From the IMG/VR virus record IMGVR_UViG_3300049846_001592, positions 1 to 43,820 of that record: a stretch of 43,820 bases of DNA. One strand, written 5' to 3'. Under the pieces are notes generated by a model, which saw only the letters and a program-made list of their open reading frames with translations, searched no databases and had not been told where the DNA came from. A program made the position numbers and the translations under genes. Within the stretch, counting starts at the first letter, position 1. The number at the start of each line of letters is the position of its first letter. The stretch comes from a virus. Shown piece by piece: positions 264 through 17,241 of the stretch.

Positions 264-698
264 TTACACCGAACTTATTGACTTCTTGCGAGGTTCGACG
301 AGAGTGTAAAAGAGCTGCGATGCTTCAGACCAAGCGTTCGACACGAGAACGATCGCCTTGGGTTCAGTCACAATGAGGCTTGAAGCCTGACCTCGGACGC
401 AGGCGCGAATCACCTCAGGTGTCACCGGAGAGAGCGCTTGAAGGTTTGCCCTGAGCGCGAGCTTCTCTTTCTCAAGGAGAAGCCCGTTGATCCGGTATTC
501 ATCGTCGAACAGCTTGTACACACGCGCATTCGTCGGCGTTAGAACGACCGCAACCTCGTTCCCGTGGATGTCGAAGACCACAAGTCCGACGTTGACCCCT
601 TCAGCCCTATCCACATCCGGGTGGAATTGGAGGAGGCTGTAGAGCCCCAATCGTCGCCCCAATTTAGGGGGTTCTATGGGCGGTCGATAGCGCATCAC
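264..698 (-). CDS. DUF3037-family protein
   Basis: A 144-residue protein of the DUF3037 type. The diagnostic start is visible: LYSLLQFHPDVDRAEGVNVG followed by LVVFD, matching the family pattern of a Tyr-Ser-Leu strand, an Arg-x-Glu and an Asn-Val-Gly turn. The middle is charged and helical and the last third alternates hydrophobic strands. The biochemical role of this family is not established; members occur in bacteria and some mobile elements. Its ATG overlaps the stop of the Thg1-like gene in an ATGA junction, so the two are probably translationally coupled. The protein ends in a TAA immediately before folD. No membrane segment or signal peptide is visible. Confidence 0.75.
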   Translation of the reverse strand: MMRYRPPIEPPKLGRRLGLYSLLQFHPDVDRAEGVNVGLVVFDIHGNEVAVVLTPTNARVYKLFDDEYRINGLLLEKEKLALRANLQALSPVTPEVIRACVRGQASSLIVTEPKAIVLVSNAWSEASQLFYTLVEPRKKSISSV

Positions 699-1483
699 CC
701 CTGCGGAATCACAAGCGAATCCTCAGCCTCGGAGGCAGCGATCAGTTCACCTAGGAACAGCGCATAGGCGTCACGTTCCAGGAGATCCTTGTCGATTCGA
801 AGCACCCTTCGCAGTTTGGTGCCCACCTCCCCGGTCTTGGAGTTGAGGGCTTGCCTCTCCTCGCGGTCGAAGAACAACCCCACTCCTTTGCGCTGCCATG
901 CGGGTACCTCCGAAAAGCGGATACCACGCTCGGCGAGGAGCGATTCACGTTCGGAGGAGGACGTGTTGTCGAGGAGGCTTTGCGCCTGTCCCGGGCCCTT
1001 CCCTTCCTGACGGAGAGTCCAGTATGACCAACCGTTCAAGGAAGCACGTAGAGCATCTGCCTGGCGCCACCTGAAGTAGTCGAACACGTCGACGGTGCTC
1101 TCGCCCACCCACACACGGGCATCGAACTCGGCGAGCTGGCCGAGCTTCAAGGAGAAGACCCCGGTCGCCCGTCCGGCACTGAGGGAGACGAGCTTCTCCA
1201 CCTCGCGGTTGAACAACGTGCTATTCCGCGGCAAGAGCACGGAGATTTCATCGCTCTCCGTGTACGCATAAACACCTCTCAGCATGAGCAGGAGCGCGCT
1301 CGCGGTCTCGACCATCTTCTCGTGGAACGAGAAGTCGAACGGCTTCACCAGCCCCAACCTCGTGGTCAGTGACGTGAAGGAACGGCCGTCGACACGAACG
1401 ACGCCATAGGAGCCGTCCGGAACTCGGAGGGAGTGGAAACACTCCCTCTTCCGCATCATTGCCTCGAAGTCGTCGTTACGCAT
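695..1483 (-). CDS. Thg1-like 3'-5' RNA polymerase (tRNA-His guanylyltransferase family)
   Basis: A 262-residue Thg1/TLP-family protein. These enzymes add nucleotides to RNA 5' ends in the 3'-to-5' direction: Thg1 adds G-1 to tRNA-His, and the bacterial and phage-type TLPs can repair truncated tRNA 5' ends. The two-metal catalytic residues are visible: Asp in VVRVDGRSF (about residue 32) and Asp-Glu in YTESDEI (78-79). Other family landmarks are FNREVEKLVSL (91-101), EFDARVW (119-125), FDYFRWRQAD (134-143) and the QRKGVG near 197-202. The His-x-Ile-Asn-Asn motif that follows WRQAD in eukaryotic Thg1 is replaced by ALRASLN, which favours a TLP-type activity over strict tRNA-His specificity. 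The C-terminal 60 residues are charged and not recognised. It lies between virion-like genes and the DUF3037 and folD genes. Inference: tRNA repair or maintenance during infection. Confidence 0.85.
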   Translation of the reverse strand: MRNDDFEAMMRKRECFHSLRVPDGSYGVVRVDGRSFTSLTTRLGLVKPFDFSFHEKMVETASALLLMLRGVYAYTESDEISVLLPRNSTLFNREVEKLVSLSAGRATGVFSLKLGQLAEFDARVWVGESTVDVFDYFRWRQADALRASLNGWSYWTLRQEGKGPGQAQSLLDNTSSSERESLLAERGIRFSEVPAWQRKGVGLFFDREERQALNSKTGEVGTKLRRVLRIDKDLLERDAYALFLGELIAASEAEDSLVIPQG

Positions 1484-1502: not shown

Positions 1503-2351
1503 CTACCGCCCCTTGCTCTTCAGCGCTGCATCGGGATCCCGGTACGTTGCCCGAACGTAGTCGTTCATCATCCCGTCCAAGAGCTTGCCCATCTCTTCGA
1601 GGTTCGCGACCATGCCGGCGTAGCGTTCTTCGGCCTTGTCCTCGTAGATCGTCATGTACTGAGCGACGCCACGAACCTTTTTCCAAAGAGAGTTGTAAGC
1701 CTCCATGTTCAAGGTGTCGAACGGTTTGCCGACGTACCAACCTCCCTTGTACCCGCTCGGAATGAGAATCTCCGTGTACTCGATGTGGTGCCAAATCTGG
1801 TACCCCACATCCTTCAAAGCGCCGAAGCGCTCCTGAACTTGATGGTGTTTCTTAGACACCACCGCGAAGCTCTTGTACGCGGCATCGAGTTTCTTGACCG
1901 GCTCGGTCTCCTTTGCCTTGGTAAGGTACGCACGCAGCTTCCTCGGAAGCTCGTAGAGCACCTTCCCGAGATCGCTGAGACCATTGTCGTAACCCAACAT
2001 GGACAACCACTGGTTGCCCTTGAGTTTCGCCAACGCAGCATGCGTAGCGGCAATGAAGGGGGCGGACTTCTTGGCGTCCAGTCCCTGAAGGGCCTCTAGG
2101 AAATTCTCGACTTCCTTCACCCCATCTCGCTGCACTTCTTTGGCATCCGCTTCGAGCGACTTCAAGTCGCTCAAAACCTTCTTCGCCAAGGGGAGGGCTT
2201 TCTTAACGGCCTCCTCACCCTTCTCGATCTCCTCCTCAGGATTGTATGGGCGCCCCCCACGGTTTTCGTCAGGGGCGTAGGGGAGGATAAACGCCCGTTT
2301 CTCACGGGCTGCAATGAACCGTTGGGCGACGCGATGTCCAAGAGTACGCAT
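1503..2351 (-). CDS. Helical virion-associated-like protein with RVAQRF N-terminal motif
   Basis: A 282-residue protein of unknown function. The ATG at 2351 is preferred because it places LGHRVAQRFIAA at the extreme N-terminus, the same basic motif that opens several neighbours; an in-frame TTG lies seven codons upstream at 2372. Residues 30-120 are rich in Lys and Glu and predicted helical or coiled coil. The C-terminal half has Trp/Tyr-rich stretches (GYQIWHHIEYTEI, GYKGGWYVGKPFD) that suggest a compact domain. No catalytic motif is recognised. It ends in TAG, with a second in-frame TAG three codons on, about 20 bases before the Thg1-like gene. A virion or injected-protein role is inferred only from its position and the shared N-terminal motif. 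Confidence 0.65.
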   Translation of the reverse strand: MRTLGHRVAQRFIAAREKRAFILPYAPDENRGGRPYNPEEEIEKGEEAVKKALPLAKKVLSDLKSLEADAKEVQRDGVKEVENFLEALQGLDAKKSAPFIAATHAALAKLKGNQWLSMLGYDNGLSDLGKVLYELPRKLRAYLTKAKETEPVKKLDAAYKSFAVVSKKHHQVQERFGALKDVGYQIWHHIEYTEILIPSGYKGGWYVGKPFDTLNMEAYNSLWKKVRGVAQYMTIYEDKAEERYAGMVANLEEMGKLLDGMMNDYVRATYRDPDAALKSKGR

Positions 2352-2377
2352 GCTATCTACCGCTTTCCCCAAGTGAT

Positions 2378-3895
2378 TTATGTGCGGCCCGTACGCCGCA
2401 CTGAAACGTTACTTCCCAAAGTGTGAAGGGAGACAACAGTAACGGAACTATCAGCCTGAAGCCGAATCTCTTCTTCACCAGGGTACCGGCGCATCGTCGC
2501 CACCGTACCGAATTCATCCACGTCGGACCGTCGAGCGAGGATCTCAATAACCACATCTTCGCCCCGCACTTCTTTGCCGTGTGGGGAATCCGCCTTCAAC
2601 CTATTCGGCGTCCAGAAGACACCCAAATTTCCAAGGTCGATTGCATCTGCGCTTGGAATGCGGACGGCACGGTACAGAGTCATAGGATTCCCCTGTGAAT
2701 CGATCCAAGCGATGATACGAGACTTGGCCTCAGCGAAGTCTGACGCGCGGATAACACGCGGGTTGGCCTCGGGCTTAAGGATCAGCTCCTTCTCATGCCC
2801 GAAAGTACGACCGCTCAAGGGCATTTTGTCTTGAGCCCAGTGGACGAGGACATCGTCCACATCGACCTCGTACGGCGTGTACATGTCAGGGGACAGATAG
2901 ACGGGCTCTTCAGTGGTCAACGACATCCCGCCCATATGCCGCGGGCGTTCCTTGTACCTGTAGGCGATGATCTTGGCGCCGTGTGATCGGGTAAAGGCCG
3001 CCCGAACGTCTGCGTCGTATGCCGCCTTCTCCTTCGGATTGAGCGAGAGATACGCCTCAAACACCCTGCCCTTGCCTGCGGAAGGCCGATGCACCCACTC
3101 CATCACCGGCGGGTACATCTTGTCGACCGCCATATCGAGCCACATGGACGCGGCTTTCACCCGGTCCCGCCATGCTCGGCCATCTCCCGACAAGTCGTCT
3201 TCGGACGCGTGCTCGACCTTCTTGAAGTCCTTCCTGGCTTGGGCAAGAAGAGCTGAGGCCCATCCCTGCCGACGCGTCGAGGGGTCCGTGAAGACATTGG
3301 CGATGACCGCAGTCTTCTTGTCCCGGGAGACGACTTGTAGAGCTGCCACGGCCTTCCCGTCCACGTACGCCACGTAGCGGTAGCTCCCGTGTGGGCTCGT
3401 GAACTTGGCGATACCGTTGCCCGACGGCTTTTTGCCTCGCTCTGGGCCGATGCCAGGCACCTTGCCGGGGTCGTTCAAGTAGACCTCTAGGCCGGCCGTC
3501 CTGAACGTATGACCGAACCTACGAAGCTCGTGGTAACGAGCATCATCCTCTCGGGTGATGGTGACCTCGTCGTCGCCGAACTGGTCTGATGTCCCGTCGT
3601 AGATGACGCCCTCGACGACCACCCACTGATGTTGCCCGTTCTTGCGCTCAATTCGACGACGTGCGGCAAAGGCCGGATCATACGATCGCTCGCCCCACAC
3701 GATGAAAGAGCGTCCGACGGGAGCAAGCCCGGCCCGTCGAGCTTCCGACAGGAACTCGTCGGAAACCAGTTCACAGTCGCCCCACTTGCTACGGACGCCG
3801 CTTACGTTCTCATGGCGCACCCGTACGAGGAGGTCTCGAAGCGCCGAGGCCGTCGCCGTTTTGTATCGGGCGAGAACGCGGGCAGAGGTGCTCAT
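2378..3895 (-). CDS. GNAT acetyltransferase-like protein with two candidate ADP-ribosyltransferase domains
   Basis: A 505-residue multidomain protein starting MSTSARVLARY; its ATG overlaps the stop of the gene before it (ATGA). Residues about 172-229 look like a GNAT acetyltransferase core: beta strands YRYVAYVDGKAVAALQVV, then VFTDPSTRRQGWASALL, where RRQGWA is the acetyl-CoA-binding R/Q-x-x-G-x-A loop. Two later segments each carry the R, S/T and E-x-E order of arginine-type ADP-ribosyltransferases: first AYRYKE (311-316), SLTTE (325-329), GHEKELILK (366-374); second LYRAV (407-411), VFWTP (426-430), EEEIRL (474-479). The GNAT call is fairly firm; the two ART calls are motif inference. ARTs of T4 (Alt, ModA, ModB) modify host RNA polymerase and translation proteins, and Alt is injected with the DNA, so a similar host-takeover role is possible. 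It sits downstream of the capsid genes and shares the RVLARY-type N-terminus with other proteins here. Confidence 0.65.
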   Translation of the reverse strand: MSTSARVLARYKTATASALRDLLVRVRHENVSGVRSKWGDCELVSDEFLSEARRAGLAPVGRSFIVWGERSYDPAFAARRRIERKNGQHQWVVVEGVIYDGTSDQFGDDEVTITREDDARYHELRRFGHTFRTAGLEVYLNDPGKVPGIGPERGKKPSGNGIAKFTSPHGSYRYVAYVDGKAVAALQVVSRDKKTAVIANVFTDPSTRRQGWASALLAQARKDFKKVEHASEDDLSGDGRAWRDRVKAASMWLDMAVDKMYPPVMEWVHRPSAGKGRVFEAYLSLNPKEKAAYDADVRAAFTRSHGAKIIAYRYKERPRHMGGMSLTTEEPVYLSPDMYTPYEVDVDDVLVHWAQDKMPLSGRTFGHEKELILKPEANPRVIRASDFAEAKSRIIAWIDSQGNPMTLYRAVRIPSADAIDLGNLGVFWTPNRLKADSPHGKEVRGEDVVIEILARRSDVDEFGTVATMRRYPGEEEIRLQADSSVTVVSLHTLGSNVSVRRTGRT

Positions 3896-4293
3896 CCCTT
3901 GATCTGCTCCTCGGCGAACTGAACCTTCCACCGCTTTGCGTCCCGATCCCATAGAACGTAGGGGTTCCGCGGTACGAAGTCGAAGTGCACCTGATCGTCC
4001 GCGTCAACCCAAACGTACATAGTCCCGATGCGGATGTCCTTGGCTCGACGAGGATCGCCAACGAGCCAATCCTGTCCGAGTCGGCGAATGAGGTCTCCGA
4101 CCCACCCTCCAAACTCCTGAGAGCCAGGGGCCGGGAAGAAACCGCCGAAGTTCGCCAACTCCGCATAGGAGATGTCAAAGGCTTCGAACTCGGAGACCTT
4201 GGGCGGCTCTGGAAGCAACGGCATAGAGGCAGCCCGGCGCCTGAACCAGTACCGAGCCGCCACACGTTTCGCCAGGGTGCTACCCACGCTCAT
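3892..4293 (-). CDS. Small protein with KRVAARYW N-terminal motif
   Basis: A 133-residue protein of unknown function. It begins with a basic segment, LAKRVAARYWFRRRAAS, then a proline-rich linker (PLLPEPPKVSEFE) and a compact C-terminal region with alternating strands (MYVWVDADDQVHFDFVPRN). The basic N-terminus resembles that of the two following proteins. Its stop overlaps the start of the GNAT/ART gene, so the two are likely co-translated. No enzyme motif is seen. Upstream is a 230-base gap ending at the LAGLIDADG-methyltransferase gene. Virion association is inferred only from context. Confidence 0.6.
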   Translation of the reverse strand: MSVGSTLAKRVAARYWFRRRAASMPLLPEPPKVSEFEAFDISYAELANFGGFFPAPGSQEFGGWVGDLIRRLGQDWLVGDPRRAKDIRIGTMYVWVDADDQVHFDFVPRNPYVLWDRDAKRWKVQFAEEQIKG

Positions 4294-4527: not shown

Positions 4528-6438
4528 CTACTTTCGAAGTACGAGGATCGGTTCGAATTTCGCTTCCTTTCCGATCCGACCGAGAGGTAACTCAAGAGTT
4601 CTCTCTAAGGTAAACCCAAGCACACGAGCAATCCTGGCGAGTTCGTCGACGATAGGGAACTCCTGTCTGCCAACACGAACGTTTTTTGTGTTCACACAGA
4701 ACACACCGCCTTCTCGAAGCACTTGGAATGACTTACGAGCAAAAGGCGTGAGAAACTCTTCTACCCATGTTGTCCAGGTTTTGTACCTGACCCAACTTTG
4801 TGTTGGGTCATTCGAGTAACGCTCGACAGAGAAGTAGGGTGGGCTCGTTAACACACAGTCAGCCAGGACATCGTCCAGTAGAACGTCCTCAAAAGGTGCG
4901 TTGGTGAAACGTGCGCTTGGATCGCCAAAAGCTTGAAACAGCGCTTGGAAGGAAGATGTCGCAGACGGATGGGGGTCTATCCCGAAGTAACGCCGGCCCG
5001 CCGCAAGTGTCCCAGCCGCCCTACCGCCATACCCGGCACAGGGGTCAAGCACAAGTCCTCCCAAAGGGCAATATGCCTCGACAAGAGCCTTTGCGAAACA
5101 CGGGCGGAAATTCGTCGGCGCACGCACGACAGCTTGGATCGCCCTCATCACACGAGTAGGTGTCACGGGATCACCAACTCGAAGCTGAAATTGAATGGCA
5201 CGACGAAGCAGGGTGGGATCGTACCAGGCTGCACGGAGAGAGGGGTTGTCTCGGTAACAGGCATCCCAGCGGTGAGGGAAAAAACGAAGACACGTAAGTG
5301 CCCCCGCATTGGAAGTCTTGATGATCGTAGTGCCTTCGATCTGAGTTGCCGCACGCTTCAGTCGAAGCACATCCTTGGCCACAGCTTCATCCGTAGCCGC
5401 GACCAATGGGATTTCCGTACGCGAGAGGATTGACACCGCCTCATCGACGTAGGATGAGCGCTTGGGGTCGAGGGACTTCAGCGCCGCACTGGCCTCATCT
5501 GAGGTGAACTCCTTGCGACTGTTTGCCTTAGGTCTACAGGGCGGTTTTTTCGCCAGCCCGAAACGACCCATGGCTCTCAGAACACTCTGCCGGGAGACAT
5601 TGAAGATTTCACCGATCTGTCCGGCAGAGAGACCTCGTTCCACAAGTGGTTGGATCTTTGCTTCGACAAGAATATCGCGCGGTAATGGCCCCGCACGACG
5701 AGGGTTGACCTCTAGCTTGTATGCCATACACGGGGGCATACAAGGAGAGACCTTGTCTACGAATCGAGTGAGGCTCGACCCACCTTGAATGTGAATAGAA
5801 GTATCCCCTGTAGTCTCATACAGAGAAGCTTTTAGACCATGAGTTCTCAAAACACGTAGCAACATGCGTTGGTTCGCCTTGTCCGGGCTGACAGCAAACC
5901 TCACGTAATTTGCAGTTCTTGACCCGTCATCCATGAACCAGACGGCAAGCGCCAGATCATCGACTTGAGTTGGGTCTAAGCCAACGAAGGTCTTGTCTCC
6001 CTTTCCGTCAGGGTAAAACAACCTCCAGTAAGGGAACAACGCTCGGCAACCATGCGTGAGGAGTCTATAGCCAGCATGTGCGCCCTTGTTGGATGGGATG
6101 GTTGACGAGACGAATGAGCCCCATTCCTTAGATTTCCAATCCAGGTAGGCCCTCTGATCAACAGAGTGGTGTTCAACATACCCTGCCGTCTCCGACCCGG
6201 TTCTACGCAAACCCCCGTCACCTAGCATCGAGCCAATGAGTATCGACAGAAGACGCGGGGGTAACGTTTCAGGTAAAGTGCGTCGGTCTGACTTGAGCAA
6301 AGTCGGGATGCCGTGCTCGGCTCTAAGCCGACTGATCTTCACCTGGTAGGTTGAAAACCGTTGTGCGATCTCGCCATCAGTCAGCCCCTCGACAACGTAC
6401 AGTTGATACAGCTCGTCGGATGAAATGTCCAGCTTCAT
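4528..6438 (-). CDS. LAGLIDADG homing endonuclease fused to an N4/N6 DNA methyltransferase
   Basis: A 636-residue fusion. Residues 1-45 form a helix-turn-helix (EGLTDGEIAQRFSTYQVKIS). Residues 60-250 are a LAGLIDADG-type endonuclease with two motif helices, ILIGSMLGDGG (66-76) and LAVWFMDDGS (164-173), both keeping the acidic metal ligand. A second helix-turn-helix follows (AGQIGEIFNVSRQSVLRAM, 272-290). The C-terminal 330 residues are an amino-methyltransferase of the N6-adenine/N4-cytosine class: AdoMet motif I LDPCAGYGGRAAG (464-476) precedes the catalytic motif IV TSPPYFS (531-537). It sits between the major capsid gene's terminator and the next virion-like gene, so it looks like an inserted selfish cassette, and the upstream terminator implies its own promoter. 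Inference: methylation could protect the site the nuclease cuts. Each domain call is firm; the linkage is unusual. Confidence 0.85.
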   Translation of the reverse strand: MKLDISSDELYQLYVVEGLTDGEIAQRFSTYQVKISRLRAEHGIPTLLKSDRRTLPETLPPRLLSILIGSMLGDGGLRRTGSETAGYVEHHSVDQRAYLDWKSKEWGSFVSSTIPSNKGAHAGYRLLTHGCRALFPYWRLFYPDGKGDKTFVGLDPTQVDDLALAVWFMDDGSRTANYVRFAVSPDKANQRMLLRVLRTHGLKASLYETTGDTSIHIQGGSSLTRFVDKVSPCMPPCMAYKLEVNPRRAGPLPRDILVEAKIQPLVERGLSAGQIGEIFNVSRQSVLRAMGRFGLAKKPPCRPKANSRKEFTSDEASAALKSLDPKRSSYVDEAVSILSRTEIPLVAATDEAVAKDVLRLKRAATQIEGTTIIKTSNAGALTCLRFFPHRWDACYRDNPSLRAAWYDPTLLRRAIQFQLRVGDPVTPTRVMRAIQAVVRAPTNFRPCFAKALVEAYCPLGGLVLDPCAGYGGRAAGTLAAGRRYFGIDPHPSATSSFQALFQAFGDPSARFTNAPFEDVLLDDVLADCVLTSPPYFSVERYSNDPTQSWVRYKTWTTWVEEFLTPFARKSFQVLREGGVFCVNTKNVRVGRQEFPIVDELARIARVLGFTLERTLELPLGRIGKEAKFEPILVLRK

Positions 6439-6585: not shown

Positions 6586-7470
6586 TCAGAAGCGCTGGAC
6601 AACGAGACGCGTCAGACCACGGGGGTTGAACGCTCCGATACCCACGTTCTCGAACACGCTGAAGCCGATCGTGCGGGCCTTGGGGTCATCGGCGCTGAGC
6701 ACCGTAAGCTCCGTGCGAACGGGGAAGCGTCCGAAGTTCTCCGGCTCCGCGCAGACGTAACAGAAGCCGACCGGGACGAGGCGGCTCGTGATGATCTGCG
6801 CGCCCCAGAGGACGGCCTGGAGGCCCGTCTTGAGGAGGGTTGCCTGGCTCTCGATGTCCAGGATGTCGCGGCCGAACTTGCGGATGTCCGCGTAGTCGAC
6901 AGCGTTCATGTAGATGCGCGCGACCCGGAGGTCGTGACGTTCGATCTCCGCGAACGCATCCGCGAGGACCGACGGCGAGATCGGTGCCACGACGGCAACG
7001 TCGGGGTTCGTCTGGCCGGGGAGCGTGTCGAAGCCCGAGACAGCGATGCTGTCCAGAACCGCGAAGACGCGCTCGTCCTCCGCTGCCTGAATCTGCGCCT
7101 TGGCGAGATCCTGACTGCGCTCGATGAGGTCGAAGCGACGCTCCTTGATCTGCGTGAGCGGGATCTCCGGGTTCGAGGCGATCTCGAACAGCGGGAAGAT
7201 CACGCGGCGAGGCTTCTGAATCGCCAGGATGTTCTGGCCTTCCTCGCCGACCACGAACGCCGTAACGTCCGGGTCCTTGTCGTAGATCGGGAGCGCACCG
7301 TCGGGGAGCGCCTCCACGAGGAACGTCTTGCGGCCAACGGCCGTGTAGTCACGGCGGAGGCGGAGGGGTTGGATCATCGAGGCGGCGAGCTTCGTACGGC
7401 CTGCGGCCGTCTTGATGTACTCGCTGATGATCTGCTGCTTGACATCGTTGGACACTTGTTGGGTTATCAT
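6586..7470 (-). CDS. Major capsid protein (HK97 fold)
   Basis: A 294-residue protein with the layout of short HK97-fold capsid proteins that lack a delta domain. An N-terminal helical arm (VKQQIISEYIKTAAGRTKLA) is followed by an E-loop region with basic residues (RLRRDYTAVGRKTFLVEALP). Next comes the spine-helix region (KERRFDLIERSQDLAKAQIQ), a P-domain helix-strand pattern (PSVLADAFAEIERHDLRVAR), and an A-domain ending in the surface strand IITSRLVPVGFCYVCAEPE. The final residues, FENVGIGAFNPRGLTRLVVQ, are a typical closing beta segment. Its neighbours support the call: decoration-like protein, Q-rich scaffold and protease lie directly upstream in the usual head-gene order, and a strong terminator follows. 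The assignment comes from architecture and context, not from a database match. Confidence 0.85.
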   Translation of the reverse strand: MITQQVSNDVKQQIISEYIKTAAGRTKLAASMIQPLRLRRDYTAVGRKTFLVEALPDGALPIYDKDPDVTAFVVGEEGQNILAIQKPRRVIFPLFEIASNPEIPLTQIKERRFDLIERSQDLAKAQIQAAEDERVFAVLDSIAVSGFDTLPGQTNPDVAVVAPISPSVLADAFAEIERHDLRVARIYMNAVDYADIRKFGRDILDIESQATLLKTGLQAVLWGAQIITSRLVPVGFCYVCAEPENFGRFPVRTELTVLSADDPKARTIGFSVFENVGIGAFNPRGLTRLVVQRF

Positions 7471-9542: not shown

Positions 9543-12368
9543 TCACGATGTCCCGAGAGCATAGAGACGACCCTTTGCGATCAGGGTGGCACCCTCAGAT
9601 TTCGTAAGGTCCCGACCCATTGCCTGGCGGCAGGCGCTGAGATACGCGGCGACGTTACGGAAGTGGCTCAGTCCACCCACTGCAACGACGACCGAGTAAA
9701 TCCGCCCCTCGCCCGCCATCGAGGAACGCCGCGTCGCGAAATCGAGAACGCGGGATACAGCGAGGATCTCCTTCCCAGTGAAGGAGCGCGACGCCTGTAT
9801 CGACTTCCATCCCCCTGACCGATACATGATCAGACCAAGGAGAACCTTCTTTGCGGCTTCCGCATCACCAGTCATCGCAATGACTGAGCGAGCAATCCCG
9901 CGCCAATGCGGGTAGCGGAGCGCCGACTTGATGATAGAGTCGTTCTCGTGGAGTTCGCCCGCAGGCTTGGGCAGTTTTGCTGCCTCGCCCTTGCCGATCT
10001 CACCACGAACCTTCTCCAGCGCACGCTCACGGATCGCATCCGCAATATCGTTGACGACCTTCTCCAACGGATCTGCGTCGTCCTTCTTGTCGGTCCCCTT
10101 GTCCCCACCACCACCTGAATCAGGGGTTCCGAAATCAAAGGGGTCCTGCGCGATCTTGGATCCCTCGGTGTCGATGGATCCACCGAGTTCAAAGCCACGT
10201 ACCTTGAGGAACTGGCCCGATTGCATGAGAGTCGCGACCTTCTGGATCATCCCAGGATCGATGTCCTGGTTGTTTGCGTTCAGCCCATTGGAGAGGATGC
10301 TCGCCATCTTGCGGGCGTCTTCCGCCGAAAGGATGTTCCGGAGGACCGCACCCGTAAAGGCCGGGTTCGCGACCCAAGACGCCTCGATGAACTTGACCGA
10401 GCCAGGATCGCTCTTGTGCCCACACAACTCAGCGATCTTCCGCTCCTTACCGAAGTCGTCGTAGAACTTCGACCCCTTGAAGTAGCGGATGTGCGGACAG
10501 AGCTGGCTTTCGTCTTCGGCGACATTGCCGCAACGGGTGCACTGAGTGAACGTGACCGTGCAGTTATGGACGGCCACACCCTCGACGACGTAGGAGTGGT
10601 CCTCGTCGACTTCCATGTCATGGACCTCACCCTGGTACGACATCGATTCGATGCTTGTGACAGGAAAGACTACTATATCATCCAGAACACGGAGATGTGC
10701 CTCGGTAGCAGCCTGATCCTCAAACGCCTTTCTGCAATGTTCGCCGAGCTTTTTGAGCTGACGTGCACCGATCACGAGATTGAAAGAAGCAAGCTTTCCT
10801 GTCTCGGGGTGTCGAATAGAGACACCGCCATTGACGGCTTCACTAACCTCTACGGTCTGTCCTCCAAATCGACATTCGATTCGAGTGAACACGCCGATGC
10901 GAGTGAGAATGGCGTGCATCTGGCACGCAAGGTTGTAGGAAGTCGTCGCCCCAGACAGATTACGACTGCCCCCTCTTGTTCTAACAGAGCGCCCTCCGTC
11001 CCCATCCAACCAACCCCCAACAAGTTGTCGTTGGATTTCTACAGGCCATGTGAAAGCTTCGAAAGATAGTCGTTTGGTCGAAGCGTACTCACCCCCATGG
11101 CATTTGAACCACTCCGCTACGTCTCGACGGTGTGCGTGGACAGTGCAAGTTGAGCGATCTTCTCGCTCCTGTACCCAAGCGGCTACGTCAAATTCTTGGG
11201 CGAGAAGTTCAACAACTTCTTGAGCAAAGGTGTTTCGTTCTGCCAAAGAAAAGTTGAACTGGACCTCTGTGATCTCGCCTTTGCGCTTAAGGAAAGACCC
11301 CTCTGCGACAAAGAAGCCGAGGAGACGAGCTTTTCCAGGGGATACCTGGTCAATGTACTCGAACTCGTTCCCAATCCTTGGGAAACAGAGGTAGTCGCCG
11401 ATCTTTAGCTCATCGGCACGAACTTCCTCAAGTGTGTAACCACGGATACTGGCTTTACGAGCGAGACGCTCCCGCGCCTCGTCGAGAGAGTAGGTGTTGT
11501 TGGGGTTAAAGACCCTCTTGTCATGCCCTACCTTGTATCGCTTAGAGATACGTCGGAGAGCGGATCGATCATCCTTCTTGAGTTCTTCACCACAACCGCA
11601 AGCGCAGTGTGTCTTTGCACGCAAGACAAAGAAGGGGTGATTTTCCGTCGCCGTAATGCGCGACGGAATACCAACAGCATCAATCTTACGAAGGTTCCAA
11701 CGCCCGATACGAATTTGCTTGTTCAGTACCTCACGGGTACGGCCCTTGTGCGTCAGAACCATATCCCCAGGTGCAACATCTTCGATAGCGACCCTAGTGC
11801 CATCGGCCATCGTGACCTGGGTGCCCGGCAAAAAGCAACCCATGGACAGCGTCTTGAGCTGGCCACTGCTGATAGCGGCAACGAGAGGACGGTACTTTCG
11901 CTGCGTCGCAACGAGGATGTCCACGTAGAGCGAATCACCGATGTCTCGGGCCGCTGCGTCGATGATCTTGCCCTTTGACATCTCCTTGATCTGAAGATGC
12001 TCGACGTAGTTCTCGCCGCCGACGAAGGTCCGGTAACACTGCTGCAAGAGCGGCCGGTCCCACGCATCGTGGTTGTTGTTGACGAATTTGGTCGTCGTGG
12101 GCGTGATGAGATAGTTCGAGAACCGACGGTCAATCTGAAAACCGTCGACAATCGATTTCCCAAGGTTCCCGGGCCCGTCCTCCGTGTCGACCGAAGCAAC
12201 GATGGTGCAGTGGCTTAGAAGCCACTCGTCCGGATCGTAGTCCTTGAAGACCACCTTCGACGCGGTCCGAGCGTTGAACGAAGCCTCCTTCGCACGCACG
12301 TCTTCCCAGCCGTCGAACGTGATGTTCGGCTGCACAACTTTGGAGTGCGCGTACTTGACGAAGGCCAT
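9543..12368 (-). CDS. Prohead maturation protease, interrupted by an intein
   Basis: A 941-codon frame: a 516-residue protein split by a 425-residue intein. The N-extein (1-177) contains FVNNNHDAW, with candidate catalytic His at 100, and LVAAISSGQLKTLSMG, with candidate catalytic Ser at 175, fitting the prohead-protease layout in which Ser lies in an SMG or SIG turn. The C-extein resumes as CTVTFTQCTRCGNVA, a Cys-rich element, then VKFIEASWVANPAFTGAV, the typical close of the protease domain near residue 700. The last 240 residues are a separate hydrophilic and helical region (a DKGTDKKDDADP linker, then helices) that may act in assembly. The protease processes scaffold and head proteins during capsid maturation. 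The start has GAGGTG five bases upstream and overlaps the preceding stop in TGATG. Confidence 0.75.
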   Translation of the reverse strand: MAFVKYAHSKVVQPNITFDGWEDVRAKEASFNARTASKVVFKDYDPDEWLLSHCTIVASVDTEDGPGNLGKSIVDGFQIDRRFSNYLITPTTTKFVNNNHDAWDRPLLQQCYRTFVGGENYVEHLQIKEMSKGKIIDAAARDIGDSLYVDILVATQRKYRPLVAAISSGQLKTLSMGCFLPGTQVTMADGTRVAIEDVAPGDMVLTHKGRTREVLNKQIRIGRWNLRKIDAVGIPSRITATENHPFFVLRAKTHCACGCGEELKKDDRSALRRISKRYKVGHDKRVFNPNNTYSLDEARERLARKASIRGYTLEEVRADELKIGDYLCFPRIGNEFEYIDQVSPGKARLLGFFVAEGSFLKRKGEITEVQFNFSLAERNTFAQEVVELLAQEFDVAAWVQEREDRSTCTVHAHRRDVAEWFKCHGGEYASTKRLSFEAFTWPVEIQRQLVGGWLDGDGGRSVRTRGGSRNLSGATTSYNLACQMHAILTRIGVFTRIECRFGGQTVEVSEAVNGGVSIRHPETGKLASFNLVIGARQLKKLGEHCRKAFEDQAATEAHLRVLDDIVVFPVTSIESMSYQGEVHDMEVDEDHSYVVEGVAVHNCTVTFTQCTRCGNVAEDESQLCPHIRYFKGSKFYDDFGKERKIAELCGHKSDPGSVKFIEASWVANPAFTGAVLRNILSAEDARKMASILSNGLNANNQDIDPGMIQKVATLMQSGQFLKVRGFELGGSIDTEGSKIAQDPFDFGTPDSGGGGDKGTDKKDDADPLEKVVNDIADAIRERALEKVRGEIGKGEAAKLPKPAGELHENDSIIKSALRYPHWRGIARSVIAMTGDAEAAKKVLLGLIMYRSGGWKSIQASRSFTGKEILAVSRVLDFATRRSSMAGEGRIYSVVVAVGGLSHFRNVAAYLSACRQAMGRDLTKSEGATLIAKGRLYALGTS
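10563..11837 (-). mobile_element. LAGLIDADG intein in the prohead protease gene
   Basis: A full-length, apparently active intein of 425 residues. Block A is CFLPGTQVTMADG with Cys1 as nucleophile. Block B is ITATENHPFF with the T-x-x-H pair. The DOD homing-endonuclease motifs are LLGFFVAEGS (172-181) and LVGGWLDGDGG (272-282), both with acidic residues. Blocks F and G are YQGEVHDMEVDEDHSYVV and VAVHN, followed by Cys+1 of the C-extein. An extra Cys-rich patch, HCACGCGEE (77-85), lies between splicing and nuclease domains and may bind zinc. The insertion is two residues after the proposed catalytic Ser, in line with inteins choosing conserved active sites. All residues needed for standard class 1 splicing are present. 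Confidence 0.95.
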
Positions 12369-13824: not shown

Positions 13825-16800
13825 TCACCCGACTTGCTTGAGGATCTGAAGAACGGGGAGAAGCGGCGCGCGGAGCTTGGGGTTCTGCGCGACAGCCTGG
13901 ACCAGCGACGCACGAAGGGCGCGGTAAGCCGCCGCCTGTTTCTGCTGGCCATCGCCCTGAGCCTGCCCCTGCTGCTGACCGCTCTGTTCTTGCTGCTGGC
14001 CCTGGTCTTGTGCCTGTTGCTGGCCACCCTGAGCCTGCTCTTGCTGCTGACCGCCCTCTTGCTGCTCATCCGCAGCGAGGCGGGCCGAAAGCTCGACGAG
14101 GTCGTACGCGATCTCCGGGTGCGTAGATGCGATCCGCGTGGCGTACGAGCGAAGTTCAACCGAACCCTTCATGGTGTTCCCCTTGTTCGTGGAATTAGAA
14201 ACCGCATTGCGCGTCATCGCGGTCGTCTCGATTTCGCCAGCCCCATAAGGAGAACTTGCAGAAACAGGCGTGTTTGCCTCACGGACCGTGAGCAACGTGC
14301 CCTTGTCGCCGACGCCCGCAAGCTGTCGAAGGAGGTCGTCGTACACCGTCGGTGCAATCGCACCAGCGTACCGCCCATCCTCACAAGTCCGGATCGCCAA
14401 GTCCAACGCAGCCCGAAGCTGTGTGTCCCGGACCACACCTTCCACGTTCTTGGCGAGCACCGGGGCGCGAAGCCATGCCCTGGCGCTCTTCAGGATGGTC
14501 TTGAAGTCCGCATCACCAAGGTCCCTCGCGTGGGCTTGCGACCAATCGGCATAAACAGCAGGCCCCTTCTCCTTCGAGTAGGGGTCAACTCCGTGGTAGA
14601 GAGCGTGGCGCTGCGTATAGGGGCGACCCATCGATCCGCCGGTGTGATAAGAAGAATACGTATAAGCGAGCTTGCCCGCAGGGATGCCCAACAGACGTAG
14701 CTGTTCTTCCGCCGGCGTCTCCCGATGCTGTGGTGCCTCGTTTTTGCTCGCCGGCGTCCTGTACGGCACATCCGGCGGGGCCATTCGCTCTCGACGGCGC
14801 TCTTCCTCCTCCCGTTCGTAGTCGGCGATCTCCTCCCGGACCTTCGCTCCCTTCTCGGGAGCCAACGTGTCCAGGTAGGAGAGAACGCGGGAACGCACGG
14901 CGGCCCCAACGTTCATCACGCTGTCCGATCCATAGATCCTCTCGTCCTTATCAGCCAAGTTTTGACTGACATCGATCAGGGCACGAGAGATTTCCAAGGG
15001 GTAACTGCGCTCGGATATGTTGTTCTCGTCGAAGAGCTGATCCAGCGCGTCGAGGTAGTCCAAACCCTGAAGGTACCCAACCGCAACCCTCCTCGCCGAC
15101 GGGTGCTTGAGAAGCTTGGACAGCATGTGCTTCGCATCGCTCGGGCTGACCCTCTCGGGCGACTGCTGCGACACCAAGTGGTCGAACAGCTTACCTGCTT
15201 CTCGACGAGCCTCTTCGGGGTCATGCGACCCGGAGAGGAGGTTCTTGGCAAGCGCTTGAGACAGGTCGGGAGGAGCCCCGTCTCTGGTAAGGGCTTTTCC
15301 GAGCCGTGTCGCTGTCGCCAAGCTGAGAGCCACCGTTCGTGCCTGGTGTTTGTTCAAGGCCACGGACTGCACTTCGGGTGACAACTGCGCGAACGGCTTC
15401 TCGACCCCGTCCGAGTCTTTCCACTTTTCGGGCGGAGGAACCTCCGACGGGTCCGTCTGATAGAACTTGCTGCCGTGCGCGACGATGTCGTCCAGAGACG
15501 GGGTCGATGGGTCGTTCTTCAACGCCATGAACGTCGCGAACGCGTCTGGAATGTCGTCCGGGTGAAGGCTTGTGAAGCGACCCAACGCGCGAATGACATC
15601 CGGTGTCCGGTCCGCCTGCGGGAGCTGATCCAACAAGGTCGCTGTGACACGCCCTGGTTCCTTGGGATCGAATTCACGTCGCCCGGGGAATCCACCACGA
15701 GGCTTGTCGCCCTTTGGCTTCTTCGGCTTCTCCTCTTTGGGCTTGTCGCCTTTCGGCTTCTCCCCCTTGGATTGCTCAGTCGGAGTACCCTTACCCTCCT
15801 CAGGAGCCGGAGCAGGTGCATCCTTACCCTCCTCAGGAGCGCCTTTGGCCTCGGGGGCTTCGGCCTTGAACAAGTCCGGGCGTGCTTGGACAGCTCGACG
15901 CAGATCGGCGATCGTGTGCATGCCCTTCGGGAGCTTCCCCTTGAGCTTGGGGAGCAGCTTTTCGATCTGAAGGGCCTCCTCGTCGACCTTTTCTTTCTTG
16001 CGAAGGGTGAGGATCTGCTTTGCCAGATCCGATGTCGACTCGTCGCTGGAAAACGTGTCGGTCAGGTCTTTCACCAAATCAGTCGTGAGGTGGTGAAAGA
16101 GAGCGCCACCGTGAAGGTGTCCTCGCTCCTCTTGGTCGAAACGCTCCATCAGGCGCGCCTGCTCCTTCGGGGGCAGCGCCTCGAACGGTACCATCTTCTT
16201 GGTTTTGGGGTCGTTGAACTTGAGCGACGCACCCTCCCCGCGAGTCGTCGGGAGCTTCTGAGCGAACTCACCAAACTCCTTCTTGTGGGTCCGATACCGC
16301 TCCAACACCTTCTTCGCGATCGCCTTGTCGTCTTTCGGCTTGGGGGCGGAAGGCGGAGTCGTGGAAGGCCCCTTGGAAGAAGGCTTCTTTGAAGACGGGG
16401 GCTTGGACGACGGCGGACTCTTAGTCCCCTCGTTTTCCTTGTCCCATGCCTTGACCGACTTCAGGGAGTTGGCGATTTCACGCGCCTCCCCGTACGTGGT
16501 GGCATCAAACATGCCCTTCCACTCGTCATTCATCTCCAGATCGCCCGCAACGTTGGCGAAGGCATGTTTAGGGTCGGTCAGCATGTCGACCGCTCTCTGG
16601 AGCTTCTTCTTGTCTTTCCCCTTGAGCTTCTTCAGGAAGCCACGTGCCTTTTCGACGATCTCCGGACGAACGTCGGAGGGACCGTTCGCGGGGGCACCAC
16701 CTGAAGTCGCAGGCTCCGATTCTGGGGTTGCACTTTCGGAGGACTCGCTCGAAACCTCGTCACTCTCGGGCTCACTCGGAGGTGTCTGTTCGGGCGTTTC

Positions 16801-17241
16801 AGAGGTGCCGGGGGAGGGTTGGGTCTCCGGCCCTTTGCTCCCCCCGTCCTTATCTTCTGCCGGGGCCTCGGGACGCTTCGTGTCTTCTTCCTTCTCGGGA
16901 AGCTCGTACTTGCCGGGTTCCTCGCGAAGGGTGTCTTCAGACACGTTGACGACACGACCGTCTTCCTTGCGAACCACAGTGACCATCTTGGCGTCCGTGG
17001 CCCGAACGAACCGTTGCAACACGCGCGACGAGACGCTGCCCCCGACGGACTTGAAGTTGAGCGACAAATCCTTGTCGCCCTTGAGATCGGGATCGCCGCT
17101 CGTATCCGGGTCACGCTCCTGAGTGCGCTCCCGACGGCTGTCATGTCGCGGGGGCTTCACCTTCGGGTTGTCGCGAACGAGCCGCTCCGCCTCTTCTTGT
17201 TCGCGCTCGTAGTTGGTCTTTGTCGCGAAACGGTGGTCCAC
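13825..17241 (-). CDS. Large low-complexity protein (1138 aa), probable virion or internal protein
   Basis: An unusually long hydrophilic protein. The GTG at 17241 has no clear ribosome site and is uncertain. Residues about 73-80 carry SRVLQRFV, the basic motif found at the N-terminus of several neighbours. It is followed by VTVVRKEDGRVVNVSEDTL, which resembles the start of the ParB-like protein at 36120-37247. Three Pro/Glu/Lys/Ser-rich linkers (about 105-205, 285-320, 460-540) separate helical blocks. The last 115 residues end in a Gln/Gly-rich run and a helical tail (ALRASLVQAVAQNPKLR). An internal ATG at 14172 (residue 1024) has AAGGGG just upstream, so the C-terminal part may also be made separately, as lambda's scaffold is from its protease gene. 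No catalytic domain is recognised. Injected or internal head protein is an inference. Confidence 0.65.
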   Translation of the reverse strand: MDHRFATKTNYEREQEEAERLVRDNPKVKPPRHDSRRERTQERDPDTSGDPDLKGDKDLSLNFKSVGGSVSSRVLQRFVRATDAKMVTVVRKEDGRVVNVSEDTLREEPGKYELPEKEEDTKRPEAPAEDKDGGSKGPETQPSPGTSETPEQTPPSEPESDEVSSESSESATPESEPATSGGAPANGPSDVRPEIVEKARGFLKKLKGKDKKKLQRAVDMLTDPKHAFANVAGDLEMNDEWKGMFDATTYGEAREIANSLKSVKAWDKENEGTKSPPSSKPPSSKKPSSKGPSTTPPSAPKPKDDKAIAKKVLERYRTHKKEFGEFAQKLPTTRGEGASLKFNDPKTKKMVPFEALPPKEQARLMERFDQEERGHLHGGALFHHLTTDLVKDLTDTFSSDESTSDLAKQILTLRKKEKVDEEALQIEKLLPKLKGKLPKGMHTIADLRRAVQARPDLFKAEAPEAKGAPEEGKDAPAPAPEEGKGTPTEQSKGEKPKGDKPKEEKPKKPKGDKPRGGFPGRREFDPKEPGRVTATLLDQLPQADRTPDVIRALGRFTSLHPDDIPDAFATFMALKNDPSTPSLDDIVAHGSKFYQTDPSEVPPPEKWKDSDGVEKPFAQLSPEVQSVALNKHQARTVALSLATATRLGKALTRDGAPPDLSQALAKNLLSGSHDPEEARREAGKLFDHLVSQQSPERVSPSDAKHMLSKLLKHPSARRVAVGYLQGLDYLDALDQLFDENNISERSYPLEISRALIDVSQNLADKDERIYGSDSVMNVGAAVRSRVLSYLDTLAPEKGAKVREEIADYEREEEERRRERMAPPDVPYRTPASKNEAPQHRETPAEEQLRLLGIPAGKLAYTYSSYHTGGSMGRPYTQRHALYHGVDPYSKEKGPAVYADWSQAHARDLGDADFKTILKSARAWLRAPVLAKNVEGVVRDTQLRAALDLAIRTCEDGRYAGAIAPTVYDDLLRQLAGVGDKGTLLTVREANTPVSASSPYGAGEIETTAMTRNAVSNSTNKGNTMKGSVELRSYATRIASTHPEIAYDLVELSARLAADEQQEGGQQQEQAQGGQQQAQDQGQQQEQSGQQQGQAQGDGQQKQAAAYRALRASLVQAVAQNPKLRAPLLPVLQILKQVG

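What the first reader, a model, noticed from the sequence alone, without database searches (positions are those of the whole stretch)
2378..3895. GNAT protein with two candidate ADP-ribosyltransferase domains in a virion cluster
After a GNAT-like core (RRQGWA loop), two segments each show the R, S/T, E-x-E order of ARTs: AYRY/SLTT/HEKE and LYRA/FWT/EEEI. Tandem ARTs combined with an acetyltransferase would be a multi-activity host-takeover effector. The N-terminal RVLARY motif shared with presumptive virion proteins suggests injection, as with T4 Alt.
Basis: inference. Interest (0 to 1): 0.8.

Follow-up and report, generated by a model that had tools for sequence, protein, structure and literature searches.

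The report
Tagged multi-enzyme protein of huge phage
A huge uncultured phage carries, next to its capsid genes, a 505-residue protein made of a short head-protein-like tag, an acetyltransferase domain and two possible ADP-ribosyltransferase modules, so it is probably packed in the virion and injected to take over the host, but the ADP-ribosyltransferase part is unproven and the overall kind of protein is already known.

Summary
The gene is real but on the minus strand (3895->2378, 505 aa). The window is a 43.8-kb fragment of a phage-G-like huge phage; the gene lies downstream of the major capsid protein. A GNAT domain is confirmed (Pfam E 4e-7). Two AlphaFold runs gave no usable model (pLDDT 34 and 47), so the ART claim is open: moderately likely for A2 (residues 386-505), weaker for A1 (283-383, unusually short R-to-S spacing). 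A2 has one relative, a 135-aa stand-alone gene in a sister phage at the same place: tag plus A2 only, 48% identical, with R409, FWT and E474-x-E476 kept. A weak YunG-like segment with C41/H88 precedes the GNAT. The strongest new result concerns the N-terminal RVLARY: R[VI][ALV]xR[YFW] is strongly enriched in relatives (43 seen, 1.4 expected; 22 against 1.35 in a second set), in portal proteins and at the N-termini of unrelated genes including zinc-peptidase-like proteins and a topoisomerase IB. It behaves like a capsid-cargo tag analogous to T4's capsid-targeting sequence. GNAT+ART injected proteins are already known as polyvalent proteins.

The parts
2378..3895 (-). the gene: 505-aa tag + YunG-like? 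+ GNAT + A1 + A2 protein (P0001)
   Evidence: open frame, codon use, ATGA overlap and RBS
3863..3880 (-). N-terminal tag RVLARY (residues 6-11)
   Evidence: R[VI][ALV]xR[YFW] 43 vs 1.4 expected and 22 vs 1.35 expected in two sets of related loci
3491..3808 (-). residues ~30-135, weak YunG-like segment with GDC (C41), QHQW (H88), YDGTSDQF
   Evidence: PF24585 YunG E 0.012 (below cut-off), phrog_26734 E 0.006; inference
3086..3433 (-). GNAT acetyltransferase domain (residues ~155-270), acetyl-CoA loop RRQGWA 208-213
   Evidence: PF00583 E 4.3e-7 and PF13508 E 2.2e-6, both above gathering score
2747..3049 (-). A1, candidate ART-like module 1 (residues ~283-383: R313, SLTT 325-328, HEKE 367-370)
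   Evidence: motif only; no homologue found
2381..2740 (-). A2, candidate ART-like module 2 (residues 386-505: R409, FWT 427-429, E474-x-E476)
   Evidence: independent domain: stand-alone tagged gene L004:14256-14663, 48% identity, motif sites invariant
3892..4293 (-). upstream 133-aa gene, also tagged (RVAARY), homologue in L004 at the same place
1503..2372 (-). downstream 289-aa gene, also tagged (RVAQRF)
13825..17241 (-). probable portal protein (1138 aa) carrying the same motif (RVLQRF at residue 73)
   Evidence: weak P22_portal match, position, motif
6586..7470 (-). major capsid protein, anchor of the cluster
   Evidence: phrog_2522 E 2.5e-52; 38.5% to phage G gp27

Best explanation
A virion-cargo effector of a phage-G-like huge phage. 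The short N-terminal RVLARY segment directs the protein into the forming head (as T4's capsid-targeting sequence does for Alt); the protein is ejected with the DNA; in the cell the GNAT domain acetylates, and at least the A2 module probably ADP-ribosylates, host proteins or nucleic acids to favour early phage expression or block defence. Shown here: the gene, the GNAT homology, the shared motif and its enrichment, A2 as an independent domain with conserved candidate catalytic sites. Inferred: packaging, injection, ART fold and activity, targets, and a cysteine-peptidase/transglutaminase-like role for the first ~130 residues.
For: Location: one of three consecutive tagged genes just downstream of the major capsid protein. 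Tag: 43 vs 1.4 expected and 22 vs 1.35 in two separate sets; per residue 3.7 times denser within 25 kb of the capsid gene than elsewhere in three huge-phage records (P 0.001); found in portal proteins. Tagged proteins are enzyme-rich: 6 of 23 N-tagged proteins have an HExxH zinc-peptidase motif against 38 of 2070 others (P 5e-6), and one is a topoisomerase IB (E 4.5e-24). GNAT. A2: a relative with tag plus A2 only, R409, FWT, E474-x-E476 kept. Parallel: phage G carries another N-terminal tag on 7 of 60 proteins (0.08 expected), one of which, gp53, matches the PARP family at E 2.5e-4, below its cut-off. Literature: in polyvalent proteins a GNAT typically has an ART next to it in the same chain (PMC5512222).
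Against: No ART family hit for A1 or A2 in any library; no alignment signal with T4 ModA/ModB; structure models too poor to judge. A1 has only 12 residues between R and S, short for an ART. No proteomics: packaging and injection are not observed. The tag is not confined to the head region: 18 of 29 hits in three records lie more than 25 kb from the capsid gene, so it may mark something broader than head cargo.
Confidence: 0.45

Rival explanations
1. Tagged virion cargo with a real GNAT domain, but the C-terminal modules are not ARTs; they are small beta-rich domains of another fold (binding or structural), and the R/ST/ExE strings are coincidence.
For: No family, PDB-sequence or fold match to ARTs; the loose motif order is common by chance (474 of 877 proteins); A1 and A2 do not align with each other.
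Against: Tight motif twice in one chain is rare; candidate sites of A2 are invariant at 48% identity, with the middle residue of E-x-E variable as in ARTs.
Confidence: 0.35
2. An enzyme made late and used inside the producing cell or in head assembly (e.g. modifying virion proteins), not injected; the motif is a docking site for scaffold or portal and the protein leaves before maturation.
For: The motif is in portal proteins themselves, once near the N-terminus and sometimes again about 270 residues before the C-terminus, so it need not mean injection.
Against: Tagged proteins are sequence-unrelated and enzyme-rich, and differ from phage to phage, as expected of host-directed cargo rather than assembly factors.
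Confidence: 0.2

Closest known systems
Polyvalent proteins of phages and conjugative elements (Iyer et al. 2017, PMC5512222)
   Same: Phage-encoded multidomain chain combining GNAT with a candidate ART, near virion genes; ARTs there occur singly or in multiple copies.
   Different: Those ARTs are of the H-Y-D type (Tox-ART-HYD2), here the candidates are R-S/T-E-x-E; this protein is short (505 aa) and starts with a small tag; no similarity was tested against their families beyond Pfam.
T4 Alt (and ModA/ModB)
   Same: R-S-E residue order as in Alt/VIP2-clade ARTs; short N-terminal segment like a capsid-targeting sequence; proposed packaging and ejection.
   Different: No detectable alignment with ModA or ModB (Alt itself not aligned); the motif differs; cleavage by a prohead protease not known; GNAT fused.
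GNAT family (Pfam PF00583/PF13508)
   Same: Pfam scores above gathering threshold and the R/Q-x-x-G-x-G/A loop.
   Different: Embedded in a larger chain; substrate unknown.
YunG family (PF24585)
   Same: H-x-W and D-x-T-x-x-Q-F spacing, upstream GxC (spacing recalled, a lead only).
   Different: Score (16.2) below the family cut-off (27); function of YunG itself is not established here.

Membership tests
GNAT acetyltransferase | profile match above curated cut-off | tested here: met
   PF00583 30.6 bits vs 20.7; PF13508 28.4 vs 27
GNAT acetyltransferase | acetyl-CoA loop [QR]xxGx[GA] | tested here: met
   RRQGWA 208-213
GNAT acetyltransferase | acetyl-CoA-dependent activity | not testable with these tools
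   needs protein
ADP-ribosyltransferase (R-S-E) | R, S/T and E-x-E in order | tested here: met
   A1 R313/SLTT325/HEKE367; A2 R409/FWT427/E474-x-E476; A2 sites kept in L004. Weak criterion on its own
ADP-ribosyltransferase (R-S-E) | match to an ART profile | tested here: inconclusive
   none found with single-sequence queries in Pfam, PHROGs, NCBIfam, PDB; ARTs can diverge beyond such searches
ADP-ribosyltransferase (R-S-E) | ART split beta fold | tested here: inconclusive
   AlphaFold pLDDT 34 (A1+A2) and 47 (A2), no usable match
ADP-ribosyltransferase (R-S-E) | NAD+ use | not testable with these tools
   needs assay
Polyvalent proteins | two or more effector-type domains in one phage protein | tested here: inconclusive
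   GNAT certain; ART and YunG-like parts unproven
Polyvalent proteins | ART of the H-Y-D (HYD2) clade | tested here: not met
   candidate sites are R/ST/E, so it is not filed as a member
T4-type capsid-targeting sequence | short N-terminal segment shared by otherwise unrelated virion proteins | tested here: met
   shared by unrelated genes of the head region incl. the probable portal; presence in virions not tested
T4-type capsid-targeting sequence | sufficient for head incorporation and cleaved by prohead protease | not testable with these tools
   needs virions
YunG | profile match above cut-off | tested here: inconclusive
   16.2 bits vs 27, E 0.012

The most novel reading that the evidence does not exclude
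R[VI][ALV]xR[YF] is a portable head-cargo sorting tag of phage-G-like huge phages, at N- or C-termini and also in the portal, that loads a fast-changing set of enzymes (metallopeptidases, GNAT, ART-like, topoisomerase IB) into the head for injection; phage G has its own version (KRLIKK). The window protein is a fused GNAT plus tandem ART example.
Probability: 0.4. Interest if true: 0.7.

Novelty: new variant of a known kind. Interest (0 to 1): 0.45.

Why it matters
If the tag is a head-loading signal, the injected proteins of uncultivated huge phages could be listed from sequence alone, and the tag could be tested for packing foreign proteins into very large heads, as T4's has been. The GNAT plus ART-like protein would be one concrete host-takeover candidate from that list.

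Tried and rejected
Relatives of the full protein by peptide-pattern scans of IMG/VR and GTDB genomes and tblastn in phages: none. Relatives of A1 and A2 alone in viral contigs, genome contigs, phages, plasmids, 48 whole huge-phage records, and 2.3 Mb of capsid-anchored loci: only L004 for A2. AlphaFold of residues 275-505 and of A2: too poor; the fold searches listed no ART but the model is not trustworthy. Tandem duplication A1=A2: no alignment signal. Phage G gp38 looked ART-like by eye but has no family support. A GNAT-like hit beside a tagged ART-like gene in G003 turned out to be a likely tail protein. The phage G virion mass-spectrometry paper is not held.

Full report
Setting. The window is one whole IMG/VR record of 43,820 bases, a fragment of a huge phage: its major capsid protein (6586-7470, minus) is up to 99% identical to other IMG/VR contigs, some over 400 kb, 83% to a 485-kb uncultured phage and 38.5% to Bacillus phage G gp27. 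The genes examined run on the minus strand: capsid, a 209-aa protein, a probable scaffold, an intein-bearing probable protease and a probable portal upstream; tail sheath further up.

The gene. It is read from 3895 down to 2378; the plus strand of that stretch has many stops. Codon use fits the minus-strand frame and no other. It overlaps the preceding tagged 133-aa gene by ATGA, with AAGG just upstream.

Domains. Residues 169-226 match GNAT models above the curated scores, with the acetyl-CoA loop RRQGWA. Residues 85-120 match YunG weakly (E 0.012), with C41 and H88 placed as a papain-like pair might be; this is a lead only. Residues 283-505 match nothing convincing in Pfam, PHROGs, NCBIfam or PDB sequences.

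The ART question. The bare order R, S/T, E-x-E is worthless as evidence: it is in 474 of 877 phage proteins. The tighter pattern found twice is rare (1 of 877; 0 of 5000 shuffles), though post hoc. A2 gains support from its only relative, L004:14256-14663, a 135-aa protein consisting of the tag followed at once by A2. The two are 48% identical, and R409, FWT 427-429, E474 and E476 are invariant while residue 475 varies. That relative also shows that A2 is a separable module and that tag and module recombine; A2's third-position GC (0.56 against 0.75-0.79 for A1 and GNAT) agrees with a separate history. A1 has no relative, and its R-to-S gap of 12 residues is short. AlphaFold with two sequences gave pLDDT 34 for A1+A2 and 47 for A2 alone; the latter's element order (a strand bearing R, helices, strands, the E-x-E, more strands) is compatible with an ART but not reliable, and fold searches were uninformative. 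As a judgement I put about 0.55 on A2 and 0.45 on A1 being ART-like.

The tag. In dereplicated capsid-sense ORFs of 80 related loci R[VI][ALV]xR[YFW] occurs 43 times against 1.4 expected after shuffling, 14 against 0.25 within the first 45 residues. A second set of 80 loci gives 22 against 1.35, with scrambled-motif controls at 0-5; there only 2 are N-terminal and several are at C-termini. In the window the strict motif is in four genes: the probable portal and the three consecutive genes 1503-2372, 2378-3895 and 3892-4293 (a looser pattern adds one site in the protease/intein ORF). In three huge-phage records read in pieces it is 3.7 times denser near the capsid gene (P 0.001), yet one record (G037) carries many tagged genes far from it. 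N-tagged proteins are unrelated to one another and rich in zinc-peptidase motifs (6 of 23 against 38 of 2070, P 5e-6); one is a topoisomerase IB. Phage G shows the same habit with another tag (7 of 60 CDS against 0.08 expected), on gp53 among others, which matches PARP at E 2.5e-4, below its cut-off. The pattern chosen for phage G was drawn up after reading its N-termini.

Mechanism. In T4, Alt and the internal proteins enter the core through a short N-terminal capsid-targeting sequence and are ejected with the DNA (PMC9026906, PMC5694885). The tag here has the expected anatomy: short, terminal, shared by unrelated proteins, also in the portal. I infer loading into the prohead by binding of the tag to scaffold or portal, ejection, then acetylation and possibly ADP-ribosylation of host targets. 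Packaging and activity are not shown.

Known or new. GNAT next to ART in one injected phage protein is described for polyvalent proteins (PMC5512222), and jumbo phages are known to carry both (PMC7824862). Differences are the R/ST/E type, the short tag and the YunG-like start. Three literature searches found no description of the RVxxRY tag; this is a limited search of open papers only.

Noticed in passing
window 4528-6438 (-): 636-aa protein joining a LAGLIDADG homing endonuclease to a DNA methyltransferase, 54-58% identical in several sister phages beside the capsid gene.
   Followed up: no
window 9543-12368 (-): Probable prohead protease interrupted by an intein with a LAGLIDADG endonuclease; similar long versions in some sister phages.
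   Followed up: no
window 695-1483 (-): Thg1-like tRNA-His guanylyltransferase (PF04446 E 1e-25) in a phage.
   Followed up: no
L197:5853-7094 (-), record G037: Topoisomerase IB (PF01028 E 4.5e-24) with the N-terminal RVATRY tag.
   Followed up: partly
L181:11156-11755 (+), record G003: Tagged 200-aa protein with an ART-like order FYGRR / WSTVERTARWF / EGEVLTLP; no database support.
   Followed up: partly
L088 (phage G) 31896-33029: gp53 begins MKRLVKA and matches the PARP catalytic domain at E 2.5e-4 (below cut-off).
   Followed up: partly
probable portal ORFs in L013, L021, L026, L036, L078: A copy of the motif about 235-275 residues before the C-terminus, perhaps a fused or cleaved cargo-like segment.
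   Followed up: no
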